DNA of 33,905 nt from positions 1 through 33,905 of the forward strand of contig JAKFYH010000034.1 of the NCBI GenBank assembly GCA_021730945.1. The letters run 5' to 3'. This document shows, piece by piece, positions 8,854-33,905 of the stretch; positions within the stretch are counted from its first letter, which is position 1; each line of letters starts with the position of its first letter. The DNA is from Acidobacteriota bacterium (lineage in GTDB: Bacteria; Acidobacteriota; Vicinamibacteria; Vicinamibacterales; UBA2999). Both the position numbers and the translations under genes were made by a program. Below the pieces are notes generated by a model. The model made no database searches, had not been told where the DNA came from, and worked only from the letters and a program-made list of their open reading frames with translations.

Positions 8854-8906
8854 TTGCAACCCTTGCCGGCAGTCTATCAGAGCCCGAAGCGGCGCTTGTG
8901 AGCGGT

Positions 8907-20126: not shown

Positions 20127-20132
20127 TAGACT
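20127..20132 (+). promoter_or_regulatory. -10 box for a leaderless tannase-family mRNA
   Basis: TAGACT lies six bases before ATG 20139, so transcription would start at or next to the A of the ATG. No Shine-Dalgarno is present at normal distance. Confidence 0.45.
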
Positions 20133-20138
20133 CTGCGC

Positions 20139-21674
20139 ATGAGTCGACCCGCCCTTTTGCTTGCGTTCGTGCTCGCCCTGCTCGTATCGGGCCCGGTGGC
20201 CCACATCGGCGCGCAGATCGAGTGCGCGGTTCCGGTGCTTCAGGCCAAGGCGCCGCCCGGCACCACCATCACCAGCGCGGCGATCGTGCCGGCCGACGGC
20301 CCGCGGCCGCGATATTGCCGGGTCGACGGACAGGCGGCGTCGCCCGGCAATCAAGTCAATTTCCGGCTCGGCCTGCCCGACGGCTGGAACGGCAAGTTCC
20401 TGTTCCAGGGGGTTGGCGGACTGGGCGGCACGATCGCCAACCTCGACGCCAGCCTGGTGCGTGGCTATGCCGCCGCCTCCACCGACACCGGTCATGTCGC
20501 CACCGACCCCGACTGGGGATCGAATCGCGCGAAGGAGATCGACTACGGCTACCGCGGCACGCACGTCACCGCCGTGGCCAGCAAGGCGCTGACTGCCGCG
20601 TTCTACACCCGGCCGGTGCAGTTCGCCTATTTCAACGGCTGCTCGAACGGCGGCCGCCAGGCGATGATGGAAGTGCAACGTTATCCCGACGACTTCGATG
20701 GGGTCATCGGCGGCCATCCGGCGACCGGCACGCCGATGCAGGCCGGCCGCGCGGTCGTGTATCAACATATGTTGGCATCGGCCGACAACTTCCTGTCGCC
20801 GGAGAAGGTGGAAGTGCTGTCGAAGGCCACACTGGCGGCGTGCGATGGCACCGACGGCCTGGTGGACGGCCTGATCACCACGCCTCAAGCGTGCCGATTC
20901 AATCCGGACGTGCTGACCTGTCGCGGAGGCGATGGTCCGGACTGCCTCACGGCCGGCCAGGTGGCGACCGTCAAGAAGGTCTACGGCGGGGCCTCGGCCA
21001 ACGGCCGGCCCTTCGCCCATGGCTTCCCGCCGGGTCATGAAGGCGGCCCCACCGGCTGGGCGCAATGGATTTCCGGCGTGGCGGCGCCGGTCACGCAGCC
21101 GGATGGCTCGCTGGCCTACGCCGGCGCGCGCTTGCCGGCGGGATATGGCCTGATGGATTCGAATTTCCGGTTCCTGGCGCTCGAGGATGACGATCCGGCG
21201 TTTGGTTGGAAAGTGCTGAACCTCGATCGCGACCTGCCGCGCCTCAAGACAATGACGGAGATCCTCAGCCCGCTCGATCCCGATCTGCGGCCCTTCAGCA
21301 AGTCGGGAGGCAAACTGATCATGTACCACGGCTGGTCAGACCCCGGCATCAGCGCGGCCGGCACCGTTGCCTACTACAACCAGATGGTGCAGGCGGTCGG
21401 TGGTCAGCAAGATGCTGACCGTTTCACGCGCCTCTACATGGTGCCGGGTATGCACCACTGCGGTGGCGGCCCCGGCCCCAACACCTTCGACATGCTCCCC
21501 GTCCTCGAGGCATGGGTGGAGAAGGGCATCGCGCCGGCCCGGGTCATTGCCTCACGGATCACCGACGGCAAGGTGGAGCGAACCCGCCCGCTGTGCCCGC
21601 ATCCGCAGGTGGCGCGCTACCTGGGCACGGGCAGCATCGACGAGGCCGCGAACTTCCGGTGTGAAGCGCGGTAA
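20139..21674 (+). CDS. tannase/feruloyl esterase family alpha/beta hydrolase
   Basis: A 511-residue secreted esterase with a signal peptide (about 1-26, LLLAFVLALLVSGPVAHIGAQ). The tannase-family catalytic set is visible: nucleophile Ser169 in FNGCSNGGRQAM with the preceding Cys168, the Asp in YHGWSDPGIS, and the His in GMHHCGGGPG next to a Cys. This is the CS-D-HC arrangement in which the two Cys bridge the catalytic Ser and His. The lid region (about 200-330) carries further Cys pairs (LAACDGTDGLVDG, CLTAGQ). Substrates in the family are phenolic esters such as tannins or feruloyl sugars; the exact one cannot be told. It follows the TonB receptor by 53 bp but has its own probable -10 box six bases before ATG, so it may be independently transcribed. 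Confidence 0.92.
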   Translation: MSRPALLLAFVLALLVSGPVAHIGAQIECAVPVLQAKAPPGTTITSAAIVPADGPRPRYCRVDGQAASPGNQVNFRLGLPDGWNGKFLFQGVGGLGGTIANLDASLVRGYAAASTDTGHVATDPDWGSNRAKEIDYGYRGTHVTAVASKALTAAFYTRPVQFAYFNGCSNGGRQAMMEVQRYPDDFDGVIGGHPATGTPMQAGRAVVYQHMLASADNFLSPEKVEVLSKATLAACDGTDGLVDGLITTPQACRFNPDVLTCRGGDGPDCLTAGQVATVKKVYGGASANGRPFAHGFPPGHEGGPTGWAQWISGVAAPVTQPDGSLAYAGARLPAGYGLMDSNFRFLALEDDDPAFGWKVLNLDRDLPRLKTMTEILSPLDPDLRPFSKSGGKLIMYHGWSDPGISAAGTVAYYNQMVQAVGGQQDADRFTRLYMVPGMHHCGGGPGPNTFDMLPVLEAWVEKGIAPARVIASRITDGKVERTRPLCPHPQVARYLGTGSIDEAANFRCEAR

Positions 21675-21703
21675 TCTGGCGTTCAGCGATACGAGGAGGC
21701 GAC

Positions 21704-22153
21704 GTGAAGACGATATTCGACGCGCAGGTATTCGAGGAGACCGTAAACCGGCTGGAAGGACTGGCACCGGCGGCGGCGCGGCAGTGGGGCAAGATGTCAC
21801 CGGCGCAGATGCTCGAGCACACCGCGCGCACGGTGGACATGGCCCTGGGCCGAGGCAAGCAACAGCAGATGCTGCTCGGCAAGTTAATCGGGTGGACGGT
21901 GCGGAAGCGTTTTCTTGGCGCCGAACCGTTCCAGAAGAACGCCCCAACCGGTCCTGACTTTGTCGTCAAGCATGAGCCCGAGTTCGAAGCGGCCAAGGCG
22001 CGCCTGATCGGCCTGGTGCGCGAACTGCACGCGAAGGGCGAGGCCGGCGTCGAGGGCCACGTGCATGGCTTCTTCGGGGCAATGAGTGGGGCCGACTGGG
22101 GTCGCACCCAGTACAAACATCTCGACCACCACTTGCGCCAGTTCGGCGCCTAG
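21704..22153 (+). CDS. DUF1569 (DinB-like four-helix) protein
   Basis: A 149-residue cytoplasmic protein. MSPAQMLEHTARTVDMALGRG and the C-terminal GRTQYKHLDHHLRQF match the DUF1569 pattern, in which spaced His residues (here in MLEHTA and KHLDHHLRQF) could bind metal as in DinB/YfiT-like helical bundles. The start is GTG 21704, supported by GGAGG five bases upstream; no in-frame ATG fits. It begins 29 bp after the tannase gene on the same strand, so may share its mRNA. Function is unknown. Its end is 13 bp from the converging metallo-beta-lactamase-fold gene. Confidence 0.82.
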   Translation: MKTIFDAQVFEETVNRLEGLAPAAARQWGKMSPAQMLEHTARTVDMALGRGKQQQMLLGKLIGWTVRKRFLGAEPFQKNAPTGPDFVVKHEPEFEAAKARLIGLVRELHAKGEAGVEGHVHGFFGAMSGADWGRTQYKHLDHHLRQFGA

Positions 22154-22166
22154 CGCCCGGCCTCGG

Positions 22167-23159
22167 CTACTTGGCCACGCGTCCGGGCGCGATGCCCTTC
22201 GCCAGCGAGTAGGACGCGCCCACCGCGCCGACCATGCAGGTCTGCCGCGTCAGCCCGACGAGATCGCGGATGCGGTAGACCGACTCGATACCCGTGCAGT
22301 GCGCGCCCAGCAGTTGCTGCACACCGAAGGCCTTGAGCTGTCCGGCCGTCCACGCCAGATGCTGGTCGGTTGCGGCGAAGAGGTGCAGCCCGCCGATCAC
22401 GGCCTTGACCGGCGCCGGGTCGATAGTCTTGCGCGCATGCTCCAGCGTATTGATTACGCCGGCATGGCCACACCCGAACAGGTAGACGGGTCCCTGCGCG
22501 GTCTGAAACACCAGCGTCATGTCTTCCGGCACGGTGTCTTCGACGTCGCCGTCGCCGGTGCGGACCTTGCCGACCGAGCTCCAGTTCCGCTCGGGATGAA
22601 TCCGGGGCACCGGCCCGGTCAGCCACACGCCGGGCAGAATCTCGGTCGGCCGATTCACCTCGATGACGCGGCCACCGGTGGCTTCGTAGTCGCGCCTGAG
22701 AGTGGCCATACGGTCGCTGACCTGGCCGTTGGGGCTGATGCGCGGCAGGAAGATGCCGCGGCCGCCGTAGATCGTGCCCAGCGCCACGGCTGACTTGGCG
22801 GCGAACTGGCGCCGCAGCGTCAGCACGCCGGCCGTGTGATCGTCGTGGTTGTGACTGAGGACGACCAGCTCGACGTCGGACAGGTCCAGCCCCATGGCCT
22901 TCAGGTTGCGTTGCACCGTGTCGTCGTGGGCGCCGGTGTCGAACAGGATGCGCCGGCCGTCCACTTCCACCAGTGCCGCGAAGCCCCACTCGCCGAACCC
23001 CTCGTCGGCCAGCATCGTCGACAAAATTTTGATCTCGAGGCTGGCGACGCGGTGGCCCGACGGCGCCGGTTGGGTCGCGGCCGGAGTGGCACCGAGCACG
23101 GTTACTGCGAGACACCAGCCGGCCATCCATGCGAAACGGCGAGAGGGCGACATATCCAT
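22167..23159 (-). CDS. exported metallo-beta-lactamase-fold hydrolase
   Basis: About 330 residues. A signal peptide (RRFAWMAGWCLAVTVLGATPAATQ) is followed by an MBL fold with FDTGAHDDTVQRNLKAMGLDLSDVELVVLSHNHDDHTAG, in which His103, His105, Asp107 and His108 form the HxHxDH metal site, then LFGCGHAGVINTLEHAR and IGGLHLF further on. The layout resembles the 7,8-dihydropterin-6-methyl-4-(beta-D-ribofuranosyl)aminobenzene-phosphate synthase-like branch of MBL proteins, but this one is exported and its substrate is unknown. ATG 23159 is six bases after TATAGT, suggesting a leaderless mRNA; ATG 23153 is an alternative. It is divergent from the M61-like gene with only 23 bp between start codons. 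Confidence 0.85.
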   Translation of the reverse strand: MDMSPSRRFAWMAGWCLAVTVLGATPAATQPAPSGHRVASLEIKILSTMLADEGFGEWGFAALVEVDGRRILFDTGAHDDTVQRNLKAMGLDLSDVELVVLSHNHDDHTAGVLTLRRQFAAKSAVALGTIYGGRGIFLPRISPNGQVSDRMATLRRDYEATGGRVIEVNRPTEILPGVWLTGPVPRIHPERNWSSVGKVRTGDGDVEDTVPEDMTLVFQTAQGPVYLFGCGHAGVINTLEHARKTIDPAPVKAVIGGLHLFAATDQHLAWTAGQLKAFGVQQLLGAHCTGIESVYRIRDLVGLTRQTCMVGAVGASYSLAKGIAPGRVAK

Positions 23160-23165
23160 CGAGGA

Positions 23166-23175
23166 ACTATACACT
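23166..23175. promoter_or_regulatory. overlapping divergent -10 boxes
   Basis: On the minus strand TATAGT (23171-23166) lies six bases before ATG 23159; on the plus strand TACACT (23170-23175) lies seven bases before ATG 23183. Both genes would be leaderless and share one bidirectional promoter of under 30 bp. Confidence 0.5.
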
Positions 23176-23182
23176 TCGGCGG

Positions 23183-24622
23183 ATGAAGATCATGGCCCTG
23201 GCCGCGCTCGCGGCCGTATTGGTGTCGGGCAAGGCGGCGGCCCAGCCGGCCGCCGGTGACGTGTCCTATCAAGTGAGCTACGCCCGCGCCGGCGATGCGT
23301 TTCTCGAAGTGCAGATCGCCTGGGGCCGTCCGCTCGCTGAACCGCGGGCGCTCGTCATGCCGCGCGCCATTCCCATGGGCTACGGTGAACAACGCTACGA
23401 CGCCTTTCTCGGCGAGCTGCAGGCGTTCACCGCCGACGGCCGCAAAGCGGCACCGGACCGAGAGGAAGGCCCGCGCTGGAGACTGAATGCCGGGACCACG
23501 CGGGTGTCGTACCGCATCGATTTGGCACGGATGGAACGCGACGTCAAGGCTGCGTCCGATGCATCGCGCGTGCGCGATGGCTACCTGGGGGCGCTCGGTT
23601 ACTCGATCTTTGCCTTCGTTGAAGGATTCGAGACCAGGCCCGTGCAGGTGCGCGTGTCGGGGCCGGCGGACTGGCCGGTGTTTGTCACCCTCGCGCCGAC
23701 TTGGCCGGTCGTGGCCGGCGCGGTCGAGACGCGCGTCGCCGACTTCTACGAACTTGCCGACGGGCAGATCGTGATGGGCCCGAAGGCCGTGGTCCGGCGC
23801 CTGGCCACCGCGCCCGTGCCGCTCTACCTTGCCGGCTACGCCGAGGGCGCCGTCGACCTCGATCGCGTGGGGCGGCTGGCTGTCAGCGCTTTCCAGCGGG
23901 TCGCCGACTACTTTGGCACCGTGCCGTTCGCGCACTACACCGTCCACCAGGAGTTGCTGGTGCCGCTGTCGCCCCAACACGAGTACGGCATGAGCATGGA
24001 ACACCTCGGGTCGAGCACCTATTACCTCGCCGCCACGACCGGGTTGACGACGGCGTCAACCGCGGAAGACGAGGCGAGGGTCCTCTATAACTTTGCGCAT
24101 CACATGGCGCACGCGTGGGTGCCGAAGCGGGCCTACGGACACGGCTACTTTCCCTTCCAATGGGAACTGGCGCCGGTGCTCGACTCGATCTGGTTTGCCG
24201 AAGGATTCGGCCAGTACGCGGCCATCATGGCCCTGGCACCGGGCGCGCCCGACGCTGGCGGGTTTCGGGACGGCATGTTGAACCGGCGGTTCCGGCCCAA
24301 CCTGGCGAGCGCGCCGGCGTTTCTCAAGCAGCTGAGCCTCGTCGACCTCAGCCGAGTCGCCTCGACCCGCTACGCCGAGGACTTTCGCACTGGCCGCCTC
24401 GTGTTTTCACGTGGCGGCCTGATGGCGGCGGCCATCGACGACCTGATTCAAAAAGAGTCGAAGGGCGCCAGGAGCCTGCGGGATGCGTTTCGTTTTCTGG
24501 TGGCCTGGACGGCACGCGAACGCCGCGCCTTCGCCAACGACGAGTTGGCGGGTTTGATACGCCAGGCGACGGGTGTCGACACCGCCGGCGTGATCGTGGC
24601 CTGGCTCAATCCGCTGCCGTAG
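23183..24622 (+). CDS. M61-like secreted peptidase homolog with altered zinc motif
   Basis: A 479-residue exported protein (signal peptide about 1-21, ALAALAAVLVSGKAAAQ). The N-terminal beta domain (about 25-210) and the thermolysin-like domain match the M61 glycyl-aminopeptidase layout, including HEYGMSMEHLGSST before the zinc motif and IWFAEGFGQYAA after it (Glu340 as third ligand). The zinc motif itself reads HHMAH (306-310) within NFAHHMAHAWVPKR, where M61 enzymes have HExxH; the catalytic Glu is replaced by His307. The C-terminal PDZ domain of typical M61 proteins is also missing. It is probably not a standard peptidase. No Shine-Dalgarno; TACACT lies seven bases before ATG 23183. Its 3' end overlaps the converging Cys-cluster gene by 17 bp. 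Confidence 0.85.
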   Translation: MKIMALAALAAVLVSGKAAAQPAAGDVSYQVSYARAGDAFLEVQIAWGRPLAEPRALVMPRAIPMGYGEQRYDAFLGELQAFTADGRKAAPDREEGPRWRLNAGTTRVSYRIDLARMERDVKAASDASRVRDGYLGALGYSIFAFVEGFETRPVQVRVSGPADWPVFVTLAPTWPVVAGAVETRVADFYELADGQIVMGPKAVVRRLATAPVPLYLAGYAEGAVDLDRVGRLAVSAFQRVADYFGTVPFAHYTVHQELLVPLSPQHEYGMSMEHLGSSTYYLAATTGLTTASTAEDEARVLYNFAHHMAHAWVPKRAYGHGYFPFQWELAPVLDSIWFAEGFGQYAAIMALAPGAPDAGGFRDGMLNRRFRPNLASAPAFLKQLSLVDLSRVASTRYAEDFRTGRLVFSRGGLMAAAIDDLIQKESKGARSLRDAFRFLVAWTARERRAFANDELAGLIRQATGVDTAGVIVAWLNPLP

Positions 24623-25871
24623 CCGGCCCGCCGTGGCCGAACACATGCAACGCCGTCACACCGCCCGCCAGGCGCGTCGTCAGCCGGCCCAGGAGGCCAT
24701 GGGGCATGGCGTGCGCCAGGTCATTGGCCTCGACCAGCGCCTGGCGAAATCCGTCGGCATCGACCGCCTGCTTTGTGGCGGCGGCGTTCATGATCGCCAG
24801 CGCGCAGGCGCTGTTCAGGATCGAAACGGCGACCGCCACCGTGTCGGTCAGCGACCGGTCGCCGGCGTCGATTGATTCGAGGCTGGCCCGGAGATAGTGG
24901 GCGACGGCTGGCTGAAGTTCGGGCGAGTTGACATCCAGGCTGGCGCGCCGCAGGTGAGCGAGATTGACCTGGCCGACCGCCGGTCCAATGCCGTGAAAAT
25001 GCAGCAGCAGCCGCGCGTTCAGGAGGCGCAATTGCAGCCGTGACGTGCCGCGCCGCGCGAGGCGCAGACGCATGGCCGCCGCCGCGAAGAGAAACCCGCG
25101 TTGCAGGAGCCGTCCCACGCGTGACGGCGCCTGCCGGGTGACGGCCGCGCGACTGGCGGCCGCATAGGGCACAGTCAACGCCACGTACTCGGCGAAGTCT
25201 GCGTCCGCAAGCCGGCGGACGCGAACCCTGGTCAAATCGTCGAGCATCATCGCCATACGCCGCACGTTGGCGCGCAGGTCGCGCGCGCCGCCCTCGGTGC
25301 GGTCGAGCAGCTGGAGCAGGTGAGTGCGAAGTATGTGAATCGACCGCGCGTCGATGGGGCGGCCGGCGACCAGGACCGTGGGCAAGGCGGGCGGGCGGAA
25401 GGTCGAGAACCATTCGTCGCGAAGTGAACCGATCTCATGGCTCGCGGCCCCGGTGCCGAGCGCCGCGCCCTCGTTGGCGGCAATCGTCGGACAGCCGAAG
25501 CTGGTGGTCACAATCACCGCCGACGGCGTGGGATGAAAGCTGTAGGGAAAGACGCGGCACGCCAGCGGCTTGCGAGCCCCGCCCAGTTCTTCGTGGATGC
25601 GGCAGCGGTTATCCGGCGACAGGAAGCCGCACGCCCCGTCGCGCCGCTTACGGATGCGCGCGAAGCCGGCCAGGCCGGCAATCGGTTCAAACGGGTTGTG
25701 CGCGGCGCCCTCGGCGGCCTGGTCGGCTTCGCGAAACCAGCGGCCGGCACCACGGGCGGTCAGCGCCTGGGCCTCGGCCTCCGACACAACGATGTCCCAT
25801 CGGCGGCAACAGCGTCCGCACTGCGCGCAGGAGAATCGCTGGGCGGGATCGACGCGAAGAGGAATCGCCAA
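24606..25871 (-). CDS. YkgJ/FliB-type cysteine-cluster protein
   Basis: About 421 residues. The N-terminus carries FSCAQCGRCCRRWDIVVSEAEA (Cys15, Cys18, Cys21, Cys22), then CGFLSPDNRC (Cys81, Cys90), HEELGGARKPLACRVFPYSF (Cys105), the CxxCxxCC ... C ... C pattern of the YkgJ/flagellin-lysine-N-methylase metal-cluster family, thought to bind Zn or Fe-S. The long C-terminal part is helical and not recognised. The start is uncertain: no ATG lies near, and TTG 25871 is preferred because it begins 17 bp after the amidohydrolase stop and has TATACT ten bases upstream. ATG 25982 would overlap the amidohydrolase by 94 bp. No flagellar genes are in the window, so a flagellin role is not supported. Confidence 0.75.
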   Translation of the reverse strand: MAIPLRVDPAQRFSCAQCGRCCRRWDIVVSEAEAQALTARGAGRWFREADQAAEGAAHNPFEPIAGLAGFARIRKRRDGACGFLSPDNRCRIHEELGGARKPLACRVFPYSFHPTPSAVIVTTSFGCPTIAANEGAALGTGAASHEIGSLRDEWFSTFRPPALPTVLVAGRPIDARSIHILRTHLLQLLDRTEGGARDLRANVRRMAMMLDDLTRVRVRRLADADFAEYVALTVPYAAASRAAVTRQAPSRVGRLLQRGFLFAAAAMRLRLARRGTSRLQLRLLNARLLLHFHGIGPAVGQVNLAHLRRASLDVNSPELQPAVAHYLRASLESIDAGDRSLTDTVAVAVSILNSACALAIMNAAATKQAVDADGFRQALVEANDLAHAMPHGLLGRLTTRLAGGVTALHVFGHGGPATAAD

Positions 25872-25881
25872 ACCAGAGAGC

Positions 25882-25887
25882 AGTATA
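25882..25887 (-). promoter_or_regulatory. -10-like box before the Cys-cluster gene
   Basis: TATACT on the minus strand lies directly after the amidohydrolase stop codon and ten bases before TTG 25871. It could give a transcript with a leader of two or three bases. Confidence 0.3.
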
Positions 25888-25888
25888 A

Positions 25889-27640
25889 TCAGCCACCGAA
25901 CGGGAGGGCACCGCGGCGGGCCTGAGCGGCCGGCGCGAAGTTGTCGGCCCGGAACACCTCGCGGCCCTCTTTGAGCGTCCACACGACCCGCGCCTTGTGA
26001 ATCTCCTCAACCGGAATCTCGAAGAGGTGGCGGTCGATCACGATCAAGTCGGCGAACTTTCCCGCCTCGAGCGACCCGCTGACCCGTTCCTCGAAGTTCA
26101 CGTAGGCGCCACCGTTGGTATAGGCAGCGAGCGCGGTCGGCAGATCCAGGCGCTCGCCGGGGAGCCACGCGGCGGTTGCGCCTGACAACGCGCGCCGGGT
26201 CACGGCCACCTGAATGGCGTCGAGCGGGTTGACCGACGAGACGGACCAGTCGCTGCCGCCGGCCAGCACCGCGCCGGCCCGGTGCAGCGCGCCAAAGGGA
26301 TAGAGCCACTTCGACCGATCGGGGCCAAGCCGGGGCTCGGTCAGCTTGACGATGTAGTCATCGGCATAGGCCCAGAGGGGCTGGAGGTTGGCCACCACGC
26401 CAAGCGAGCGGAAGCGGCCGATGTCCGCCGGATCGATCAGCTCGAGGTGGGCGATGTGGTGCCGGCGATCGCCGCCGCCGTTGGCGCGCGCTGCCGCCTC
26501 AATCGCGTCGAGGCCCTGCCGCACCGCGCCGTCGCCAATCGCGTGCATGTGCACCTGGAACCCGTCGCGGTCGAGCCGCGCCACCAGTGCGTGCAGCCGG
26601 CTGTCGGTGAAGGCGGGCAATCCTCTTGGATGCGCGGCCGGCGCACGCTCGCCGGCCAAGGGCAAGTACGGCTCGAGCAGCATCGCCGTGCCCGACTCGA
26701 TCACGCCGTCGAGGAACACCTTGGCGGCTCCCGCCGTGACGCCCGGTTCCACGGTGCCGGCGCGCACTTGTATCAACCGGTCCACCTGAGAGGCCTCCTC
26801 ATCAGGATTGGTGTACAGCGAGAGCCGCGCCCGCGCGGTGAGCTGGCCTTGCCGCGCCACGGCTCGATAGGCCGCCACCATCGGTTCGCGGGCGTTGGCT
26901 TCCTGGAACGAGACGATGCCAAACCGATTCAACTGCGCCAGCGCGATCCGCAGCCCCGTCTCGTACTCCGCGGCCGTGACCGGCGGCTGCACCTTGCTGA
27001 CGATTTCGGTGGCCGACTCCAACAGCACACCGGTGGCCTCGCCGTTGGCATCGCGCTCGATGCGGCCGGCAGGCGGATCCGGCGTGCTCTTCACGATCGC
27101 CGCCGCCGCCAGCGCCGCCGAGTTGACCCACATGGAATGACCATCCGCGGAGCTGAGCGCTGCCGGTATCTTGCCCGTCACTTCATCGAGCGCCTCCCGG
27201 CGAGGACCGCCAGGGAACGTCGTCATGGACCAACCGCCGCCCACGATCCACGGCCGGCCGTTGCGGGCTTCCACGCATCTGCCGACTGCGTTCAGCGTGG
27301 CCGCTGCGCCGACCACCTCGTTCAGGTTGCACTGACCCAGCTCGACACCGGCGCTGACGGGATGCACGTGCGCGTCGTGAAACGCCGGCATCACGAACCG
27401 ACCGCCGAGATCGACCACACGGGTCTGGCCGCCGGCCAGAGGCGCAATATCGGCTGTCGCGCCGATGGCGATGATGCGACCGTCACGCACGGCGAGGGCC
27501 TCGGCCCACCGGCGTTCCGCGTCGAGGGTGTAGATCTTGCCATTGGTCAGCAGGAGCTCCGGCGGCGGAGTGGCGCCGGGTGGCGTGGCGCACCCCGCGA
27601 TCAGCATCAGCAATGACAGCGCGAGCGACGGGCGGATCAT
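25889..27640 (-). CDS. amidohydrolase family 3 (YtcJ-like) lipoprotein
   Basis: A 583-residue TIM-barrel hydrolase. The N-terminus is a lipoprotein signal (SLLMLIAGCATP, Cys17), followed by the flanking beta domain LLLTNGKIYTLDAERRWAEALAVRDGRIIAIG. Metal ligands His91 and His93 sit in FHDAHVHP; later blocks are HMHAIGDGAVRQGLDAIE, IAHLELIDPADIGRF and GGSDWSVSSVNPLDAIQVAVTRR with the conserved Asp. The match is to the YtcJ/N-substituted formamide deformylase-like branch; substrate unknown. It starts nine bases after the upstream MBL-fold gene, so the two form an operon of exported hydrolases. No Shine-Dalgarno is visible, so translation may be coupled. Confidence 0.9.
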   Translation of the reverse strand: MIRPSLALSLLMLIAGCATPPGATPPPELLLTNGKIYTLDAERRWAEALAVRDGRIIAIGATADIAPLAGGQTRVVDLGGRFVMPAFHDAHVHPVSAGVELGQCNLNEVVGAAATLNAVGRCVEARNGRPWIVGGGWSMTTFPGGPRREALDEVTGKIPAALSSADGHSMWVNSAALAAAAIVKSTPDPPAGRIERDANGEATGVLLESATEIVSKVQPPVTAAEYETGLRIALAQLNRFGIVSFQEANAREPMVAAYRAVARQGQLTARARLSLYTNPDEEASQVDRLIQVRAGTVEPGVTAGAAKVFLDGVIESGTAMLLEPYLPLAGERAPAAHPRGLPAFTDSRLHALVARLDRDGFQVHMHAIGDGAVRQGLDAIEAAARANGGGDRRHHIAHLELIDPADIGRFRSLGVVANLQPLWAYADDYIVKLTEPRLGPDRSKWLYPFGALHRAGAVLAGGSDWSVSSVNPLDAIQVAVTRRALSGATAAWLPGERLDLPTALAAYTNGGAYVNFEERVSGSLEAGKFADLIVIDRHLFEIPVEEIHKARVVWTLKEGREVFRADNFAPAAQARRGALPFGG

Positions 27641-27649
27641 CGCGAGTGG

Positions 27650-28738
27650 CTACTTCACTTTCCCGTCAAGAATCTCGTAGGCGCGGCGCATGCCGTGATT
27701 GGGCGTCAGGCCCACCGTCCGGATGCCGGGGAAGTGCACCGCGTTGCCGCGCAGATCGACCTGCCTGGCGGCGTCCTCCCACGGCGTGCCTGCCTTGTGG
27801 AACCGTTGCGCCTGCGACCAGAAATCGCGCAGGTAGGCCTGCCAGTGATCCAGCTTGGCCATGTCGGTAAAGGCCGCGCCGTGCCCAGGCAGCACGGTGC
27901 CGAGGTCGAGTTTCTTCATCGCCTCGATCGTGTCCACCCACTCCGGGACGAAGGCATCGCCCATGTACGACGTGCCATTCACCATCAGGTCGCCGGTCGC
28001 GACGATGCGCTCTTTCGGCAAATAGACGACCACGTCGCCGGCGGTGTGGCCGCGGCCAAGGAAGAGGATGCGAATCTCGCGCCCACCGCGAAACAGCGTC
28101 ATGGTCTCAGTGAGCGTCAGCGTCGGCGGCGTCGGCTTCACCGCGTTGGTGCTCTCGAGGTGATTGCGCTGGATGTCGAGTTGATTCTGGATCGTAGCCT
28201 TGGTCTTGTCGGCGGATGCAGTTGCAAGCCTCGCTTCGAGGCCCTTGATCTGCGCGGGCACGCCGCCGACATAGAACTCGCGAGCGGGTGAGTCCTGCGA
28301 CTTGCCGGCGAGGATCTGCTGACGGGCAAACTCGTGGCCGATAATCTCCACATCGGGACCGTAGATCTGATTGCCGTGCGAGTGATCGAAGTGGTAGTGA
28401 GAGTTGACGACCCAGCGAATCGGCTTGGGCGTGATCGCCTTCAACTCGTCGCGCAGCGCCCATGCGGCACCGGGTGAGACCTGCGAGTCGACCACCAGCA
28501 CATCGCGGTCGCCCTCGATAATTGTCGCGTTCGACATCACCACCAGGCTGCCCGTGCCCACGGCGTGATAGACGCCGTCGGTGATCTTGTTGAATGTCCA
28601 CGCCGGCGCCTTGTAGCTCGTGCCCGGCGGGCGGGTGTCGGCCGGCGATCCTTGCCGGGCCGCCACCGGCCCGAAGGCCAGCGCGATGGCGCCGAAGACG
28701 GCAATCGTGAGGAGCAGGAGTGGTCGCTGGCGTGTCAT
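27650..28738 (-). CDS. exported metallo-beta-lactamase-fold hydrolase (subclass B-like)
   Basis: A 362-residue protein with a signal peptide (about 1-28, LLLLTIAVFGAIALAFGPVAA). The metal site is VNSHYHFDHSHG (His114, His116, Asp118, His119), followed by FLGRGHTAGDVVVYLP, ATGDLMVNG and VLPGHG, the ordered ligands of active MBL-fold enzymes. A charged helical insertion (about 150-205, LEARLATASADKTKATIQNQLDIQ) separates the first two metal motifs, and the C-terminal 70 residues are an extra helical region. Substrate unknown; a role in beta-lactam resistance should not be assumed. ATG 28738 begins the signal peptide and has TAGAAT ten bases upstream. It is co-directional and nine bases from the amidohydrolase gene. 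Confidence 0.88.
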   Translation of the reverse strand: MTRQRPLLLLTIAVFGAIALAFGPVAARQGSPADTRPPGTSYKAPAWTFNKITDGVYHAVGTGSLVVMSNATIIEGDRDVLVVDSQVSPGAAWALRDELKAITPKPIRWVVNSHYHFDHSHGNQIYGPDVEIIGHEFARQQILAGKSQDSPAREFYVGGVPAQIKGLEARLATASADKTKATIQNQLDIQRNHLESTNAVKPTPPTLTLTETMTLFRGGREIRILFLGRGHTAGDVVVYLPKERIVATGDLMVNGTSYMGDAFVPEWVDTIEAMKKLDLGTVLPGHGAAFTDMAKLDHWQAYLRDFWSQAQRFHKAGTPWEDAARQVDLRGNAVHFPGIRTVGLTPNHGMRRAYEILDGKVK

Positions 28739-28748
28739 GGTGCCGGGG

Positions 28749-28754
28749 ATTCTA
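28749..28754 (-). promoter_or_regulatory. -10 box before the MBL-fold/amidohydrolase operon
   Basis: TAGAAT on the minus strand lies ten bases before ATG 28738, predicting a leader of about three bases. No Shine-Dalgarno is present. Confidence 0.4.
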
Positions 28755-28768
28755 CCTGAACCGTCGGC

Positions 28769-28774
28769 TATACT
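28769..28774 (+). promoter_or_regulatory. -10 box before the Ser/Thr kinase gene
   Basis: TATACT lies 14 bases before ATG 28789, predicting a leader of about seven bases without a Shine-Dalgarno. It is arranged divergently from the TAGAAT box at 28749-28754. Confidence 0.4.
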
Positions 28775-28788
28775 CACCAGACGCCGAC

Positions 28789-31530
28789 ATGTCAGCGCTT
28801 CCCCTTGGTACCCGCCTCGGCCCATACGAGATCATCGAGCAGATTGGCGAAGGTGGCATGGGCGAGGTGTATCGGGCCACCGATCCGCGACTGAAGCGGC
28901 AGGTGGCGCTGAAGGTCTTGCCCGTGGCGGTGACGGCGGATCCGGAACGCCTGGCCCGCTTCCAGCGCGAAGCGGAAGTGCTGGCATCGCTCAATCATCC
29001 CAACATCGCAGGGCTGTACGGCGTCGAGGATGGTCCGGCTGAAGCCAAACATCACATGCGCGCGCTGGTGATGGAACTGGTCGAAGGTCCGACGCTGGCT
29101 GATCGGATCGCGCAAGGGCCGGTGCCGGTTGTCGAGGCGCTGGCAATCGCACGGCAGATCGCCGAGGCGCTCGAAGCGGCGCACGACCAGAACATCATTC
29201 ATCGCGACCTGAAGCCCGCCAACATCAAGCTGCGCCAGGACGGCACGGTGAAGGTGCTCGATTTTGGCCTCGCCAAGGCGATGGATCGGTCGGAGGGCGA
29301 TGGCTTCAGCCGTCGCCAGGCGGCTGACGCGTCCGCCCTCCGAACGGTCACGTCACCAGTCGTGACGGGCGCCGGCATCATTCTCGGCACGGCCGCCTAC
29401 ATGAGCCCCGAGCAGGCGGCGGGGAAGCCAGTCGATCGCCGCACCGACATGTGGGCGTTTGGGGTCGTCCTGCTGGAAATGCTGACGGGGAAGCGTGTCT
29501 TCGACGGCGAATCGGTGTCACATGTCATCGCGGCCGTGTTGAAGGACGAACCTGACTGGTCGGCGCTACCTCCGGACACCCCGGGCGTAGTCCGCAAGCT
29601 GCTGCGGCGCTGCCTGGAGAAGGATCGCCGAAAGCGTTTGCCAGATGCGGCGGCGGCCCGTCTTGAGTGTGATGACGCGATCGCGACACCTCGCGACGCC
29701 GCCGTCGCGCCGTTGCTGGCGCCGAAGTCTCGGCCGTGGCCCGTGGTTGCCGGCGCCATCGCCGGGGCGTTGGTCGCAGGCCTAGTCGGCTGGACGCTCT
29801 GGCCCGCGGACCCGGTCGCACCGCCGAGTACCCGGTTTGCGATCGATCTACCGGCCGAACAGGTGTTCACCCGCGCCGGTCGCCACGTGCTGGCGCTGTC
29901 GCCAGACGGCATGCACCTGGTCTACATCGCCAATCGTGCGCTGTACCTGCAGTCGTTCAACCAACTGGCGCCGACGATGATCGGGGGTACGGCTAATGCG
30001 GACCCGTCGGAACCCGTGTTCTCACCCGACGGCGCCTGGATTGCCTTCTGGTCAAACGGCGTGCTGAAGAAGATCCCGTTCGGTGGCGGAAGTGCCATCG
30101 CCCTGGCGGAGATCGACAATCCCCTCGGGTTGACGTGGATCGGCGACCAGATCGTGGTGGGCCAGGCTCGCACTGTCCTCCAGGTGCCGGCCGACGGCGG
30201 CACGGTCCGGACGCTGCTATCGATCGACAAGACCGCCGGCGAGTGGATCCAGACGCCGCAACTGATCGATGACGGTCGCGCGGTCCTCTTCACACTGCGG
30301 ACCGACGAGCGCGACTGGACCGGCTCGAACATCGTCGTGCAGGACCTTGCGAGCGGGGCGCGGATGACGCTGGTTCAGGGAGGAACCGATGGCCGCGCGC
30401 TGCCCGGCGGGCTGCTGCTCTACGCGCGCGAGAATGCGTTGTTCGCCGTCGCCTTCGATCCGCGAAAACGCGAAACATCAGGTCCGACCGTGCCGGTGGA
30501 GCGCGGCGTACTCCCATCGGTGGGCGGGTTCACCGGCGCCTCTCAAATAGCGTGGTCGCCGTCCGGCAGCCTGGCCTACGCCGTGGACGACCTCGGGGCA
30601 GACAGCGCACTGACCTGGATGACGCGGCAGGGCGTCCTGCAACCCACGGCATTGCCGGCGCGGCCGATGTTCCAGGGGCCGCGCTCGTTCTCCTTGTCAC
30701 CGGACGGCAAGTACGTGTCCATGCGCCTGATGGGGGCGTCGCGATCGCAGACCGACGTCTGGATTGGCGACATCGCGCGCGGCACGTTCACGCGGTTGAC
30801 GTCCAGCGGTACGGCGACCGATGCGCAATGGACGCCCGATGGCCGTCGGGTGTGTTACCGGGAGAGTCCCTACGATGTGCGCTGCCAGCCCTTCGACGGC
30901 AGTGCTCCGGCAGAGAGCCTGTTTCAGCTGAACAAGCTGAGCACCATCGCCGAGTTCTCGCGCGATGGTGACTGGCTGCTGCTGAGCATCAGCGGGCAGA
31001 ACGGGGGCTTCGACATCTGGGTCACCCCCAACCGGCCGCCGTACGAGGCGAAGCCACTGTTGGCGACCGACGCTGATGAGGGCATGGCGGTGCTGTCGCC
31101 AGATGGACGATGGCTGGCGTACCAATCCGGCGAATCGGGCAGGGATGAGATCTATGTGCGTCCATTCCCGAACGTCGGTCAGGCCCGGTGGCAAGTGTCG
31201 GCATCTGGAGGCGCGGCGCCACGATGGTCGAGAGATGGCCGTGAGTTATATTTTCTGGCCATGGAGTCGGCCGGCGCGACTCTGCGAGCGACGCTGACGG
31301 CGGTGCCGGTCATCGCCGGCGCGTCCTTCAGCACCGGGGCGGCCGTGCCGCTCGCCACGATGGCGTCCAGCGCACGCGGGTACGACGTCGCCCCTGATGG
31401 CCGATTTCTGATTGGCTCGACCGGAAGCAGTACCGGCGGCTCGATCGGCACGCGCCAGCGCATTGTCGTCGTGCAAAACTGGCTCGATTCGCTGCGCCGC
31501 CGCATGACGGAGTCCACCGCCGCGCGCTGA
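28789..31530 (+). CDS. transmembrane Ser/Thr protein kinase with PD40/TolB-like propeller
   Basis: A 913-residue Hanks-type kinase. The kinase domain (about 13-285) is intact: glycine loop GEGGMGEVY (20-28), VALKVL with Lys42, HRDLKPANIKL with catalytic Asp140, DFGLAKA with Asp158, GTAAYMSPEQA and DMWAFGVVLLEMLTGKRVF. A single membrane helix (about 318-338, VVAGAIAGALVAGLVGWTLW) leads to an extracytoplasmic beta-propeller (about 360-900) with WD40-like PD40 repeats such as SPDGMHLVYIAN, SPDGAWIAFWS, SPDGRWLAYQSGESGRDEIYVRPF and WSRDGRELYFLA. This layout is widespread in acidobacteria; the propeller presumably senses a ligand outside. ATG 28789 fits the kinase homology start MSALPLGTRLGPYEI; the frame opens further upstream. 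Its end is three bases from a converging gene. Targets unknown. Confidence 0.94.
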   Translation: MSALPLGTRLGPYEIIEQIGEGGMGEVYRATDPRLKRQVALKVLPVAVTADPERLARFQREAEVLASLNHPNIAGLYGVEDGPAEAKHHMRALVMELVEGPTLADRIAQGPVPVVEALAIARQIAEALEAAHDQNIIHRDLKPANIKLRQDGTVKVLDFGLAKAMDRSEGDGFSRRQAADASALRTVTSPVVTGAGIILGTAAYMSPEQAAGKPVDRRTDMWAFGVVLLEMLTGKRVFDGESVSHVIAAVLKDEPDWSALPPDTPGVVRKLLRRCLEKDRRKRLPDAAAARLECDDAIATPRDAAVAPLLAPKSRPWPVVAGAIAGALVAGLVGWTLWPADPVAPPSTRFAIDLPAEQVFTRAGRHVLALSPDGMHLVYIANRALYLQSFNQLAPTMIGGTANADPSEPVFSPDGAWIAFWSNGVLKKIPFGGGSAIALAEIDNPLGLTWIGDQIVVGQARTVLQVPADGGTVRTLLSIDKTAGEWIQTPQLIDDGRAVLFTLRTDERDWTGSNIVVQDLASGARMTLVQGGTDGRALPGGLLLYARENALFAVAFDPRKRETSGPTVPVERGVLPSVGGFTGASQIAWSPSGSLAYAVDDLGADSALTWMTRQGVLQPTALPARPMFQGPRSFSLSPDGKYVSMRLMGASRSQTDVWIGDIARGTFTRLTSSGTATDAQWTPDGRRVCYRESPYDVRCQPFDGSAPAESLFQLNKLSTIAEFSRDGDWLLLSISGQNGGFDIWVTPNRPPYEAKPLLATDADEGMAVLSPDGRWLAYQSGESGRDEIYVRPFPNVGQARWQVSASGGAAPRWSRDGRELYFLAMESAGATLRATLTAVPVIAGASFSTGAAVPLATMASSARGYDVAPDGRFLIGSTGSSTGGSIGTRQRIVVVQNWLDSLRRRMTESTAAR

Positions 31531-31533
31531 GGC

Positions 31534-31899
31534 CTATTCGGCCACCTGCGTTAGCGCCCGTTCGAGCAAATCAGCGACGCCAAGCTCGGCCGCCCAGCGA
31601 TGCAAGTACCCCGCATCGGCGTTGGGGTTGACGCGAAGCACGCCGACGATGTCCCACCATTGCCGTTCCGAAGTCTCGCCGCCACGCCGGAACCACTCAA
31701 GCTTCGCCAGCACGGTGTCTTCCGCCGACGCCACAATGACCCGAGCAGCCCCAGCCGTTTGATCAATAGCCTGGGCGCGGGCGCGGGCGACGCCGTGGGC
31801 AGAACTAGCCACCGAGCCGGTCACGTAGTATCGAACCCGCAGACGTTCAAGGGCCTCGACGACCGGCGTCAGCGCCGCGGTGAGATCGCTCCCGCTCAT
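31534..31899 (-). CDS. nucleotidyltransferase-like protein, internally shortened, probably inactive
   Basis: Only 121 residues. The N-terminal YYVTGSVASSAHGVARA (24-40) matches the GS-containing start of a nucleotidyltransferase fold, and the C-terminal SAEDTVLAKLEWFRRGGETSERQWWDIVGVL (59-89) matches the end of the same family. In full-length relatives, as I recall them, the GS motif is followed within a few residues by an Asp-x-Asp metal site and about 60 residues of core before SAED. Here RARAQAIDQTAGAARVIVASAED joins the two ends directly, so the catalytic aspartates and core are absent while the frame stays open. The ATG overlaps the stop of the 95-residue partner gene (ATGA, 31896-31899). 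It is likely an in-frame deletion remnant. Confidence 0.7.
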   Translation of the reverse strand: MSGSDLTAALTPVVEALERLRVRYYVTGSVASSAHGVARARAQAIDQTAGAARVIVASAEDTVLAKLEWFRRGGETSERQWWDIVGVLRVNPNADAGYLHRWAAELGVADLLERALTQVAE

Positions 31900-32183
31900 G
31901 ACCCAACCGGCGCTGCCGACTGGCGCCGGGCCAGGTCTCGCCTAAGCGCCGCCGCGAGTTCGCGGCCGTAGTGCAGTTCGACGAATCTGGCATCGAGGGC
32001 GTCTTGTGACTGCCGTGGACTCTGCCGCGCCAGTGCGATCCGTGCCGCGCCGATGACGGTAGCGGACAGCGACCACGCCAGGTGCAGGCGCCGCGACACC
32101 GGAGCCGCGCGTAGCAGATCAATCTGCACGCGTTCGGCTTCCGCGGAAGTGTCCGAGGGGCGGGGCGGAATCAACGCGGCCAT
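31896..32183 (-). CDS. conserved small protein paired with a nucleotidyltransferase-like gene
   Basis: A 95-residue, mostly helical, Arg-rich cytoplasmic protein without a recognised domain. The pattern DTSAEAERVQIDLLRAAPVSRRLHLAWSLSATVIGAARIAL ... RFVELHYGRELAAALRRDLA recurs, to my knowledge, as a small ORF immediately upstream of GSVAS-type nucleotidyltransferase genes. It overlaps the shortened nucleotidyltransferase by 4 bp, so the two are translationally coupled. The two-gene layout recalls toxin-antitoxin modules, but nothing here shows toxicity. ATG 32183 has TATCAT eight bases upstream and no Shine-Dalgarno, so its mRNA is probably nearly leaderless. Divergent from the tricorn-like gene with 33 bp between start codons. 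Confidence 0.75.
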   Translation of the reverse strand: MAALIPPRPSDTSAEAERVQIDLLRAAPVSRRLHLAWSLSATVIGAARIALARQSPRQSQDALDARFVELHYGRELAAALRRDLARRQSAAPVGS

Positions 32184-32191
32184 CTGTCGCC

Positions 32192-32207
32192 ATGATACGA
32201 GTAGAAT
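32192..32207. promoter_or_regulatory. back-to-back divergent -10 boxes
   Basis: Minus-strand TATCAT (32197-32192) lies eight bases before ATG 32183, and plus-strand TAGAAT (32202-32207) lies nine bases before ATG 32217. The whole divergent control region is 33 bp and leaves at most one to three leader bases on each mRNA. Confidence 0.5.
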
Positions 32208-32216
32208 CGCCCCATC

Positions 32217-33905
32217 ATGAAGCGATTCCTTGGGCTTGCGACGTTGACTCTACTGTTCCTGCCGGGTCCGGTGGAACTGGCCGCCAACGGCACGCTTGGG
32301 CGCCGAAGCGCGGAGCGCGAAGGTGGCCCTACCCGGATGTTGCGTTCGCCGTCGATCAGCGCGACCCACGTCGCGTTCGTCTACGCCAACAATATCTGGG
32401 TGGTCGAACGCGCCGGTGGCAATGCCCGGCGGCTGACCAGCTTCCAGGGGCAGACGGTCAATCCCAAGTTCTCTCCCGATGGGACGACCATCGCCTTCAG
32501 CGGCGACTACGGCGGCAACGTCGATGTCTATACCGTGCCCGCGGAGGGCGGCGAACCGAAGCGGCTGACCTGGCATCCCGGCGCCGATACCGTGCAAGGG
32601 TGGACCGCCGACGGCAGCGGCGTGATGTTCGCTTCGGCACGAGCGACGTCGGCGCCGAATGCGACGCCGCGCTTCTGGACGGTGCCGGCGAGAGGCGGCG
32701 TCGAGGAACCACTGCCGCTGCCGCGCGGCTACCAGGGCAAGATCTCCGCGGATGGCAAACGCATTGCGTATCGCATGAACACCTCGTGGGACGAGGAGCG
32801 CCGCAACTATCGCGGTGGCCAGAACCGCCCGGTCTGGATTGTCGATCTCAAGACGTTCGACCTGGTCTCGCCGCCGTGGACCGATTCGAAGGACGTCGAC
32901 CCGGTGTGGCTCGGCGACACTGTGTTCTTCATCTCCGATCGTGACGGGATGGCCAACGTCTGGTCGTACGACACCGCCACCAAGGCGATGACCCAGCGCA
33001 CCAAGTTCATTGACTACGACGTGAAGACGCTCGATGCCGGCGGCGGGATGGTGGTCTTCGAGCAGGCGGGCTGGCTGCACACGCTCGATCCCAAGACCGG
33101 CAAGACGACGCAGCTCACCATCACCGCGTCCGGTGACTTCCCGTGGATGATGCCGCGGTTTGAGGACGTGACCGGCCGGATGACCAACCTCGGGATCTCG
33201 GCGACGGGCAAGCGCGTGGTCGTCGAGGCTCGCGGCGAGATCTTTACCATTCCCGGCGAGAAGGGCGACGTCCGCAACATCACCAACTCCAGCGGCTCGG
33301 CCGAGCGTCAGCCGGCGTGGTCGCCCGACGGCAAGTGGATCTCGTACTTCAGCGACAAGTCGGGGGAATACCGGCTGGTGATCGAGGCGCAGGAGGGCAT
33401 CGCGCCCTCGCGCGAGATCGCGTTCCAGAAGGCGGCGTTCTACTACACGCCGGTGTGGTCGCCCGACTCGAAGAAGCTGCTCTACACCGACACCAACCTG
33501 AACGTGTGGGTGATGGACATCGCGACCGGCCAGGCGAAGATTGTCGGCAACGATCCCTGGATGGTGCCGCAGCGCACGCTGGCACCGACGTGGAGTCCCG
33601 ACTCGAAATGGGTGGCGTTCGCCTCGCGCCTCAATACCCTCTACCGCGCCATCGTCGTCGCCAACGTCGAGACCGGCGAGAAGCGGCAGGTGACCGACGG
33701 CCTGGCCGATGCGATGTATCCGGTGTGGGACGCGAGCGGCAAGTACCTGTGGTTCCTGGCCTCCACCAACTTCGGCCTCGGCTCGCAGTGGCTCGACATG
33801 ACGTCGTACGGCGTCCAGGAGACGTTCGCGCTGTATCTGGCGGTCCTGAAGAAGTCCGATCCGAGCCCCCTGCTGCCGGAGAGCGATGAAGAGGCGGGTG
33901 GGGCG
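32217..33905 (+). CDS. tricorn-like protease, N-terminal propeller region (cut by right edge)
   Basis: The frame is open for 563 codons to the window end, so no stop is seen. A signal peptide (MKRFLGLATLTLLFLPGPVELA) is followed by MLRSPSISATHVAFVYANNIWVVERAGGNARRLTSFQG, the typical start of bacterial tricorn homologs, and by propeller blades such as FSPDGTTIAFSGDYGGNVDVYTV, LGDTVFFISDRDGMANVWSYD, WSPDGKWISYFSDKSGEY and WSPDSKKLLYTDTNLNVWVMD. The second propeller, PDZ and S41 serine-protease domains would lie beyond the edge. Tricorn-type proteins degrade peptides; here export is predicted, so periplasmic or extracellular action. It has no Shine-Dalgarno; TAGAAT lies nine bases before ATG 32217. 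Confidence 0.88.
   Translation, partial: MKRFLGLATLTLLFLPGPVELAANGTLGRRSAEREGGPTRMLRSPSISATHVAFVYANNIWVVERAGGNARRLTSFQGQTVNPKFSPDGTTIAFSGDYGGNVDVYTVPAEGGEPKRLTWHPGADTVQGWTADGSGVMFASARATSAPNATPRFWTVPARGGVEEPLPLPRGYQGKISADGKRIAYRMNTSWDEERRNYRGGQNRPVWIVDLKTFDLVSPPWTDSKDVDPVWLGDTVFFISDRDGMANVWSYDTATKAMTQRTKFIDYDVKTLDAGGGMVVFEQAGWLHTLDPKTGKTTQLTITASGDFPWMMPRFEDVTGRMTNLGISATGKRVVVEARGEIFTIPGEKGDVRNITNSSGSAERQPAWSPDGKWISYFSDKSGEYRLVIEAQEGIAPSREIAFQKAAFYYTPVWSPDSKKLLYTDTNLNVWVMDIATGQAKIVGNDPWMVPQRTLAPTWSPDSKWVAFASRLNTLYRAIVVANVETGEKRQVTDGLADAMYPVWDASGKYLWFLASTNFGLGSQWLDMTSYGVQETFALYLAVLKKSDPSPLLPESDEEAGGA

What the first reader, a model, noticed from the sequence alone, without database searches (positions are those of the whole stretch)
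20127..32217. Recurrent TANNNT 6-10 nt before start codons: a leaderless-gene signature
Seen: TAGACT-N6-ATG (20139), TATAGT-N6-ATG (23159, -), TACACT-N7-ATG (23183), TATCAT-N8-ATG (32183, -), TAGAAT-N9-ATG (32217), TAGAAT-N10-ATG (28738, -) and TATACT-N10-TTG (25871, -). None of these has a Shine-Dalgarno, whereas ahcY, glgE, the YtxH, NHL, TonB-receptor and DUF1569 genes do. In such GC-rich DNA, this many TANNNT hits at this spacing is unlikely by chance. It implies two initiation modes in one genome.
Basis: partly seen in the sequence, partly recalled or inferred. Interest (0 to 1): 0.55.

Follow-up and report, generated by a model that had tools for sequence, protein, structure and literature searches.

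The report
Leaderless genes in an acidobacterium
In this bacterium many genes appear to begin transcription right at their first codon, so their messages lack the usual ribosome landing site; the trick is already known in bacteria, but here it is well supported by sequence, and some back-to-back gene pairs may share one tiny two-way start signal.

Summary
All seven TANNNT-N6..10-start sites are present as described. In a 1.23-Mb sample of the genome, with starts called from codon usage alone, TANNNT lies 6-9 nt before 138 of 975 starts, against 22 expected (dinucleotide shuffles, maximum 33 of 200) and 27 of 6,493 internal ATGs. The sites behave like sigma70-type -10 boxes: 91 of 377 starts with a divergent neighbour against 11 of 395 operon-like starts (p 6e-20), Shine-Dalgarno cores the reverse; -35-like hexamers peak 17 bp upstream; most close orthologues keep the box. 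The leaderless reading is supported; no RNA 5' ends were available. It is a known kind: Zheng et al. 2011 predicted leaderless genes in 3 of 3 Acidobacteria genomes (9.7-19.4%). Beyond the finding: of 12 divergent pairs with 14-27 bp between codon-called starts, 5 have TANNNT on both strands; with motif-aware starts, 10 of 18 (nine of eleven decoy motifs 0-1). These resemble bidirectional promoters between two leaderless genes, as at 23159(-)/23183(+). Shared use is not shown.

The parts
20127..20132 (+). -10-like box TAGACT, 6 nt before ATG 20139 (tannase/feruloyl esterase family gene, PF07519)
   Evidence: the close homologue in G006 (L219) has TATACT-N6-ATG
20139..21674 (+). predicted leaderless gene, tannase family
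23166..23171 (-). -10-like box TATAGT, 6 nt before ATG 23159(-) (metallo-beta-lactamase-fold gene)
   Evidence: G003 (L064) has TAGATT-N6-ATG; G001 (L063) has no clear box at N6-10 (read by eye)
23170..23175 (+). -10-like box TACACT, 7 nt before ATG 23183 (peptidase M61-like gene); shares the TA at 23170-23171 with the opposite-strand box
   Evidence: TACACT at N7 in L063 and N6 in L064 (read by eye)
23160..23182 (.). whole 23-bp gap between two divergent start codons, holding both overlapping boxes (ANNNTANNNT): proposed bidirectional leaderless promoter
   Evidence: controls. With codon-only starts the caller put this gap at 83 bp
22167..23159 (-). predicted leaderless gene, metallo-beta-lactamase fold
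23183..24622 (+). predicted leaderless gene, peptidase M61 N-terminal domain
25882..25887 (-). -10-like box TATACT, 10 nt before TTG 25871(-) (CxxCxxCC putative zinc/iron-chelating family)
   Evidence: TATACT-N6-TTG (L212), TACAAT-N6-GTG (L211), TATACT-N8-GTG (L216); none in L213
24606..25871 (-). predicted near-leaderless gene (0-4 nt leader)
28749..28754 (-). -10-like box TAGAAT, 10 nt before ATG 28738(-) (metallo-beta-lactamase fold)
   Evidence: box at N8-N10 before the orthologous ATG in 7 of 7 loci examined, own included
27650..28738 (-). predicted near-leaderless gene (0-4 nt leader)
28769..28774 (+). -10-like box TATACT, 14 nt before ATG 28789 (protein kinase domain with PD40 repeats): short-leader gene, divergent from 28738(-)
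   Evidence: conserved in L194 at N15; domains
32192..32197 (-). -10-like box TATCAT, 8 nt before ATG 32183(-) (95-aa conserved gene of unknown function)
   Evidence: exact TANNNT at N5-11 in 9 of 13 loci from 11 genomes, own included
32202..32207 (+). -10-like box TAGAAT, 9 nt before ATG 32217 (PD40 beta-propeller gene); non-overlapping divergent neighbour of the previous box
   Evidence: TAGCAT-N7 (L202), TAGGAT-N8 (L204), TACAAT-N9 (L205); L201 and L203 lack an exact match (read by eye)

Best explanation
The TANNNT motifs are sigma70-type -10 promoter boxes placed so that transcription starts at, or within a few bases of, the start codon. The genes behind them give leaderless or near-leaderless mRNAs that ribosomes recognise by the 5'-terminal start codon rather than by a Shine-Dalgarno sequence. 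Genes inside operons, which have no promoter of their own, use Shine-Dalgarno sequences more often. Where two such genes stand head to head, the two -10 boxes can overlap on opposite strands, so one pseudo-symmetric box of 7-10 bp may serve both genes with about 17-25 bp between the two start codons. Shown by computation: the motif, its spacing, its gene context, -35 coupling in a minority, and conservation in most close orthologues examined. Inferred: the actual RNA 5' ends, translation of the leaderless form, and use of a shared box in both directions.
For: Position: peak at N6-N9 (53, 34, 29, 23 of 972) with starts called from codons only; 138/975 against shuffle mean 22.4, maximum 33 of 200 shuffles; 27/6,493 internal in-frame ATGs and 10/4,251 out-of-frame ATGs; 25/100 unambiguous starts against 2.75. 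Sequence: a two-motif EM started from TANNNT ended at T.77 A.91 (t/g) a (a/c) T.98, middle preferences it had not been given. Promoter partners: TTGACA-like hexamers (4 or more of 6 matching) at spacer 17 in 17 of 162, against a mean of 4.8 (range 1-9) at 21 other spacers, p about 3e-4 after correction; TG in extended -10 position in 25 of 162 against about 9 at most other positions (a second value of 20 lies two bases further upstream). Context (1.63-Mb sample): 91/377 divergent against 11/395 operon-like (gap 20 nt or less), p 6e-20; Shine-Dalgarno core 66/377 against 119/395, p 5e-5. Shine-Dalgarno core in 17/138 TA-led and 208/837 other starts. Conservation, own genome counted: 28738- 7/7, 25871- 4/5, 23183+ 3/4, 23159- 2/3, 32217+ 4/6, tannase 2/2 close homologues, 95-aa gene 9/13 loci. 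Positive control with the same pipeline: 44 actinobacterial loci, 47/533, mode N6. Published precedent: PMC3160421 and the experimentally tested -10 motif of Deinococcus in PMC12340547.
Against: No transcript data. Most TA-led starts show no -35-like hexamer at 17 bp (145 of 162). Footprints are not universal: L213, L201, L203 and the 23159- orthologue in L063 lack an exact box at N6-10; of four tannase paralogues (40-45% identity) two have no box near the projected start and two only before an ATG 11 and 17 codons downstream, not credited; the M61 homologue in L065 has GGGGGGAGG before its ATG instead. In reciprocal-best pairs from small samples only 3 of 5 (G005) and 1 of 4 (G026) TA-led starts kept the motif, with shifted-spacer controls 1 of 3 and 0 of 3. 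100-kb samples of four other acidobacterial families show no N6-9 excess. N9-N10 sites may carry leaders of a few nt. The gene caller is home-made; 471 of 983 starts carry neither signal. With codon-only starts the window's own 23159/23183 gap is not recovered (83 bp instead of 23).
Confidence: 0.9

Rival explanations
1. The boxes are -10 elements of ordinary promoters with very short but non-zero leaders (about 2-9 nt), and translation depends on an unstructured AT-rich start region rather than on a true 5'-terminal start codon.
For: N9-N10 sites and the kinase at N14; the box of the 95-aa gene family stands at N6 to N11 by script and at about N14-N15 in three loci by eye.
Against: The mode in the sample is N6, where +1 would fall on the start codon, and counts drop from 23 at N9 to 8 at N10. 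Ten of eleven other AT-containing hexamer skeletons at the same spacing mark 70-137 of 1,302 genes against 255; the eleventh, TNNNAT, marks 204 but matches every TANNAT box by construction.
Confidence: 0.25
2. Chance matches in AT-poor DNA, or an artefact of choosing starts by eye.
For: Seven sites were picked by eye; the N10 sites lie outside the peak.
Against: Shuffles, internal ATG controls, unambiguous starts and orthologue conservation.
Confidence: 0.02
3. The overlapping opposite-strand boxes arise only because TA is self-complementary and leaderless starts need little upstream DNA: there is no selection for, or functional use of, a shared bidirectional promoter.
For: Shared-base arrangements need four specified bases rather than six, so they are the likeliest way to fit two boxes in a short gap (reasoning). 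The TANNNTA pattern is not enriched in other genera of the same family (20 against 24 for the reversed control, ten genomes). Of its six matches inside the fetched DNA of this genome only two lie between two called starts. The gap distribution with codon-only starts shows no peak at 20-26 bp.
Against: Own genome 9 against 0, six genomes of the genus 47 against 18; nine of eleven decoys 0-1 against 10 pairs; 5 of 12 short-gap pairs have both boxes at codon-only starts.
Confidence: 0.45

Closest known systems
TA-led (leaderless) genes of bacteria, Zheng et al. 2011 (PMC3160421)
   Same: TANNNT around 12 bp upstream of the start, counted from its first T, which equals N6; TAnnnT form in high-GC genomes; Acidobacteria 3 of 3 genomes, average 13.3% (9.7-19.4) in their Table 2
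   Different: This genome is probably from a part of the phylum that their three did not cover (inference; the three are not named in the text I saw). Context, -35 coupling and orthologue footprints are added here.
-10 motif adjacent to ORFs in Deinococcus-Thermus (PMC12340547)
   Same: TANNNT about 6-7 bp before the ORF, alongside genes with a GGAG-type ribosome binding site
   Different: There shown by experiment to act as a -10 region interacting with RpoD, in nearly one third of D. radiodurans genes; here sequence evidence only
Bidirectional promoters with a shared -10 (PMC12825309, PMC10268837)
   Same: Opposite-strand -10 boxes sharing bases; the two commonest offsets here equal TSS distances of 18 and 23 bp if +1 lies 7 bp after the box
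   Different: Reported in E. coli and Salmonella from mapped TSSs; here the start codons themselves would be the two TSSs, and no TSS is mapped

Membership tests
Bacterial leaderless (TA-led) genes | TANNNT positioned so that +1 falls on the start codon, above shuffled background | tested here: met
   (sample of 1.23 of 4.73 Mb)
Bacterial leaderless (TA-led) genes | no Shine-Dalgarno at these starts | tested here: met
   0 of 7 window sites; 17 of 138 against 208 of 837 elsewhere, with 387 of 6,493 at internal ATGs
Bacterial leaderless (TA-led) genes | the box is a sigma70-type promoter element | tested here: inconclusive
   indirect support only: 17-bp -35 signal in 17 of 162, promoter-proximal context; no binding or transcription test
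Bacterial leaderless (TA-led) genes | RNA 5' end at or within a few nt of the start codon | not testable with these tools
   no transcriptome held
Bidirectional promoter with shared -10 | opposite-strand -10 boxes sharing bases in a short divergent gap | tested here: met
   10 of 18 pairs at 14-27 bp with motif-aware starts, boxes overlapping in 9; 5 of 12 with codon-only starts have both boxes
Bidirectional promoter with shared -10 | two opposite-strand TSSs 7-25 bp apart | not testable with these tools
   definition from PMC10268837

The most novel reading that the evidence does not exclude
In this genus, head-to-head leaderless genes are repeatedly fired from one self-complementary -10 box that, with its 5-9 nt flanks, is the entire 17-25 bp between the two start codons. 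Each initiator codon would be both the +1 of its own transcript and upstream promoter sequence of its neighbour, so promoter symmetry and leaderless translation together set a lower limit on gene spacing. (Probability lowered from 0.4 to 0.35 after one search showed that only two of six examinable pattern matches lie between two called starts.)
Probability: 0.35. Interest if true: 0.55.

Novelty: new member of a known kind. Interest (0 to 1): 0.4.

Why it matters
It gives a well-controlled sequence case for leaderless initiation in an acidobacterial lineage. It shows a division of labour (TANNNT boxes at promoter-proximal starts, Shine-Dalgarno cores more often inside operons), and it warns that starts and promoters in such genomes may be misannotated if only Shine-Dalgarno sequences are expected. 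The compact divergent pairs make a testable link between bidirectional promoters and leaderless translation.

Tried and rejected
Rejected: chance; AT-richness near starts as the whole story (decoy skeletons); the idea that the 95-aa ORF is spurious.

Inconclusive or against: anti-Shine-Dalgarno status of this genome, since no 16S rRNA gene is found in the assembly; the reciprocal-best orthologue test, too few pairs. A phylum-wide reading of the shared-box pattern is not supported: one search gave 20 against 24 in ten other genomes of the family, 109 against 75 in 27 genomes of other families of the order and 22 against 11 in six genomes of other orders of the class (sums checked); I did not sum the remaining rows of the 396 genomes, many of which show no excess. 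One search drew evenly from the phylum with completeness of at least 80 asked for, and three of the nine genus genomes (G001, G006, G007) are not in its table. 100-kb samples of four other acidobacterial families showed no N6-9 excess: 2/52, 4/63, 2/90, 2/69 (mononucleotide shuffles 2.3, 3.3, 2.3, 1.4). Small sets not relied on: Gemmatimonadota 4/68 (shuffle 1.8), Fibrobacter 5/17 (shuffle 1.5). Of 80 loci fetched, 75 were used; L104, L107, L119, L126 and L137 were left out. In footprinting I did not examine the weak or partial matches L066-L091, L199, L206-L209, L214, L215 and L217.
Full report
What was checked. The seven sites were read from the window and match the finding letter for letter. 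The window is contig C48 of a 4.73-Mb, 67-contig genome. A same-order genome, G026, is one contig of 7,480,314 bases, which fits the 7.48 Mb listed for Luteitalea pratensis DSM 100886 in PMC8841776 (passages only). That identity, and hence a placement near Vicinamibacteria, is inference.

Test on a genome sample. I wrote a gene caller that uses codon log-odds and start-codon weights only, so that start choice cannot favour the motif, and ran it on 1.23 Mb (983 genes). TANNNT peaks at N6-N9. It stands before 138 of 975 starts, against 22.4 (sd 4.0, maximum 33) in 200 dinucleotide shuffles, 27 of 6,493 internal in-frame ATGs and 10 of 4,251 out-of-frame ATGs. Where only one start codon is possible, 25 of 100 carry it (shuffles 2.75, maximum 9). 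Miscalled starts dilute the raw rate: in 44 actinobacterial loci the same pipeline gives 47 of 533, or 8.8%, where Zheng et al. report an average of 19.2% for that phylum. The 14% here may therefore be a lower bound.

Is it a promoter? Four lines say so. (a) An EM fit started from TANNNT learned TATAAT-like preferences in the middle bases; its class shares (TA 0.29, Shine-Dalgarno 0.49, neither 0.22) rest on noisy starts. (b) TTGACA-like hexamers stand out at spacer 17: 17 of 162 against a mean of 4.8 and a maximum of 9 at 21 other spacers. (c) In the 1.63-Mb sample, TANNNT at N6-9 marks 91 of 377 starts with a divergent upstream neighbour, 23 of 199 co-directional starts after a gap over 100 nt, 34 of 289 after 21-100 nt, and 11 of 395 after 20 nt or less; Shine-Dalgarno cores run the other way at the extremes, 66/377 against 119/395. 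(d) Close relatives mostly keep the box while the surroundings change (own genome counted in each case). For 28738(-), 7 of 7 loci examined have TAGAAT or TATAAT at N8-N10. For 25871(-), 4 of 5, with TTG or GTG starts; one of these loci, L212, has an in-frame stop in the gene. For 23183(+), 3 of 4, the fourth (another family) having GGGGGGAGG instead; for 23159(-), 2 of 3; for 32217(+), 4 of 6 (spacings at these starts read by eye from the printed upstreams). For the 95-aa gene, 13 loci from 11 genomes: 9 have an exact box at N5-N11, three more have TACCAT at about N14-N15 by eye, one has no placed start; three of the 13 have an in-frame TGA. The close tannase homologue (80% identity) has TATACT-N6-ATG; four paralogues at 40-45% identity gave no creditable box.

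Breadth. An N6-9 excess over mononucleotide shuffles appears in a same-genus genome (20/162, shuffle 4.9), the same-order G026 (12/149, 3.3), eleven named acidobacterial loci (13/145, 3.4), Actinobacteria (47/533, 7.1) and ten Planctomycetota loci (15/99, 3.7), but not in 100-kb samples of four other acidobacterial families (2/52, 4/63, 2/90, 2/69). The named loci were fetched as neighbours of ahcY and I assigned phyla from their titles.

Divergent pairs. In the 1.63-Mb sample (1,302 genes, 192 divergent pairs), with starts allowed to follow the motif, 18 pairs have 14-27 bp between start codons; in 10 both starts have TANNNT at N6-9, and in 5 more one does. Nine of eleven decoy motifs give 0-1 such double pairs; TNNNAT (4) and ANNNTA (6) match many of the same boxes by construction; TANNNT at three shifted spacer ranges gives 1, 0 and 0. 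With codon-only starts, which cannot favour the motif, 12 pairs have gaps of 14-27 bp; 5 have the box at both starts and 4 at one. Five of the ten motif-aware pairs keep the same gap with codon-only starts; the window's 23159/23183 pair does not (83 bp), and the codon-only gap distribution has no peak at 20-26 bp. In eight of the ten, the boxes share bases as TANNNTA (four pairs) or ANNNTANNNT (four pairs); the others have offsets 2 (overlapping) and 6 (adjacent). With +1 on each start codon and N6 spacing, the two main arrangements equal TSS distances of 18 and 23 bp; in E. coli 18 is the commonest, with 10 and 23 also common (PMC12825309, passages).

Whole-genome pattern. CAT-N5..8-TANNNTA-N5..8-ATG has 9 matches in this genome and its reversed control none. 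Six of the nine lie in the fetched stretches: two sit between two called divergent starts, three touch one called start, and one touches none. Over six genomes of the genus the counts are 47 against 18; in ten other genomes of the family 20 against 24; in 27 genomes of other families of the order 109 against 75; in six genomes of other orders of the class 22 against 11 (sums; tests of all but the last). The arrangement is credible in this genus and unproven beyond it. Because TA is self-complementary, base sharing is also the cheapest way to fit two boxes in a short gap, so selection for co-expression is not shown.

What is known. Leaderless TA-led genes in Acidobacteria were predicted in 2011 (PMC3160421: outline, passages and one section seen). 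The -10 motif next to ORFs has been tested experimentally in Deinococcus (PMC12340547: outline and two sections seen). PMC10783764 (passages) lists 41 for Vicinamibacteria in what appears to be its percent-Shine-Dalgarno column. Four searches joining leaderless genes with bidirectional or divergent promoters (20 of 20 rows listed, 15 of 78, no paper, 12 of 29) showed in their listed rows no paper whose title or abstract start describes shared-box leaderless pairs; none of the listed papers other than PMC12825309 and PMC10268837 (passages) was opened for this, and the library lacks most subscription papers. PMC5333194 (listing only) holds the words leaderless and overlapping promoters and concerns restriction-modification systems; it was not read. 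No acidobacterial TSS map appears in the listed rows (20 of 42; 20 of 69) or 59 (1 of 1).

Verdict. The kind is known; the lineage detail, the operon/promoter division of labour and the compact divergent pairs are the added value.

Noticed in passing
28769-28788: The protein-kinase gene at 28789(+) has a conserved TATACT at N14 (N15 in L194), implying a leader of several nt; it is divergent from 28738(-), with 14 bp between the two boxes.
   Followed up: partly
31534-32183: A 95-aa gene conserved in relatives (11 of 40 genomes, own included) overlaps by 4 nt a 121-aa ORF; neither matches Pfam or NCBIfam at the thresholds used.
   Followed up: partly
8859-8876: The NifA-like regulator ORF has TAGACT at N11 before a TTG start: another possible short-leader gene.
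   Followed up: no
L099, L101, L103, L118, L123, L124, L129, L136, L143, L164: Planctomycetota loci show TANNNT with mode N6 (15 of 99 starts at N6-9, shuffle 3.7): possible leaderless genes there too.
   Followed up: no
L064 and window 23130-23190: In relative G003 the intergenic DNA of the M61/metallo-beta-lactamase pair differs, yet both starts still have a TANNNT at N6 (read by eye).
   Followed up: partly
whole assembly G000: No 16S rRNA gene is found in this assembly, which is rated 100% complete, so the anti-Shine-Dalgarno end cannot be read.
   Followed up: no
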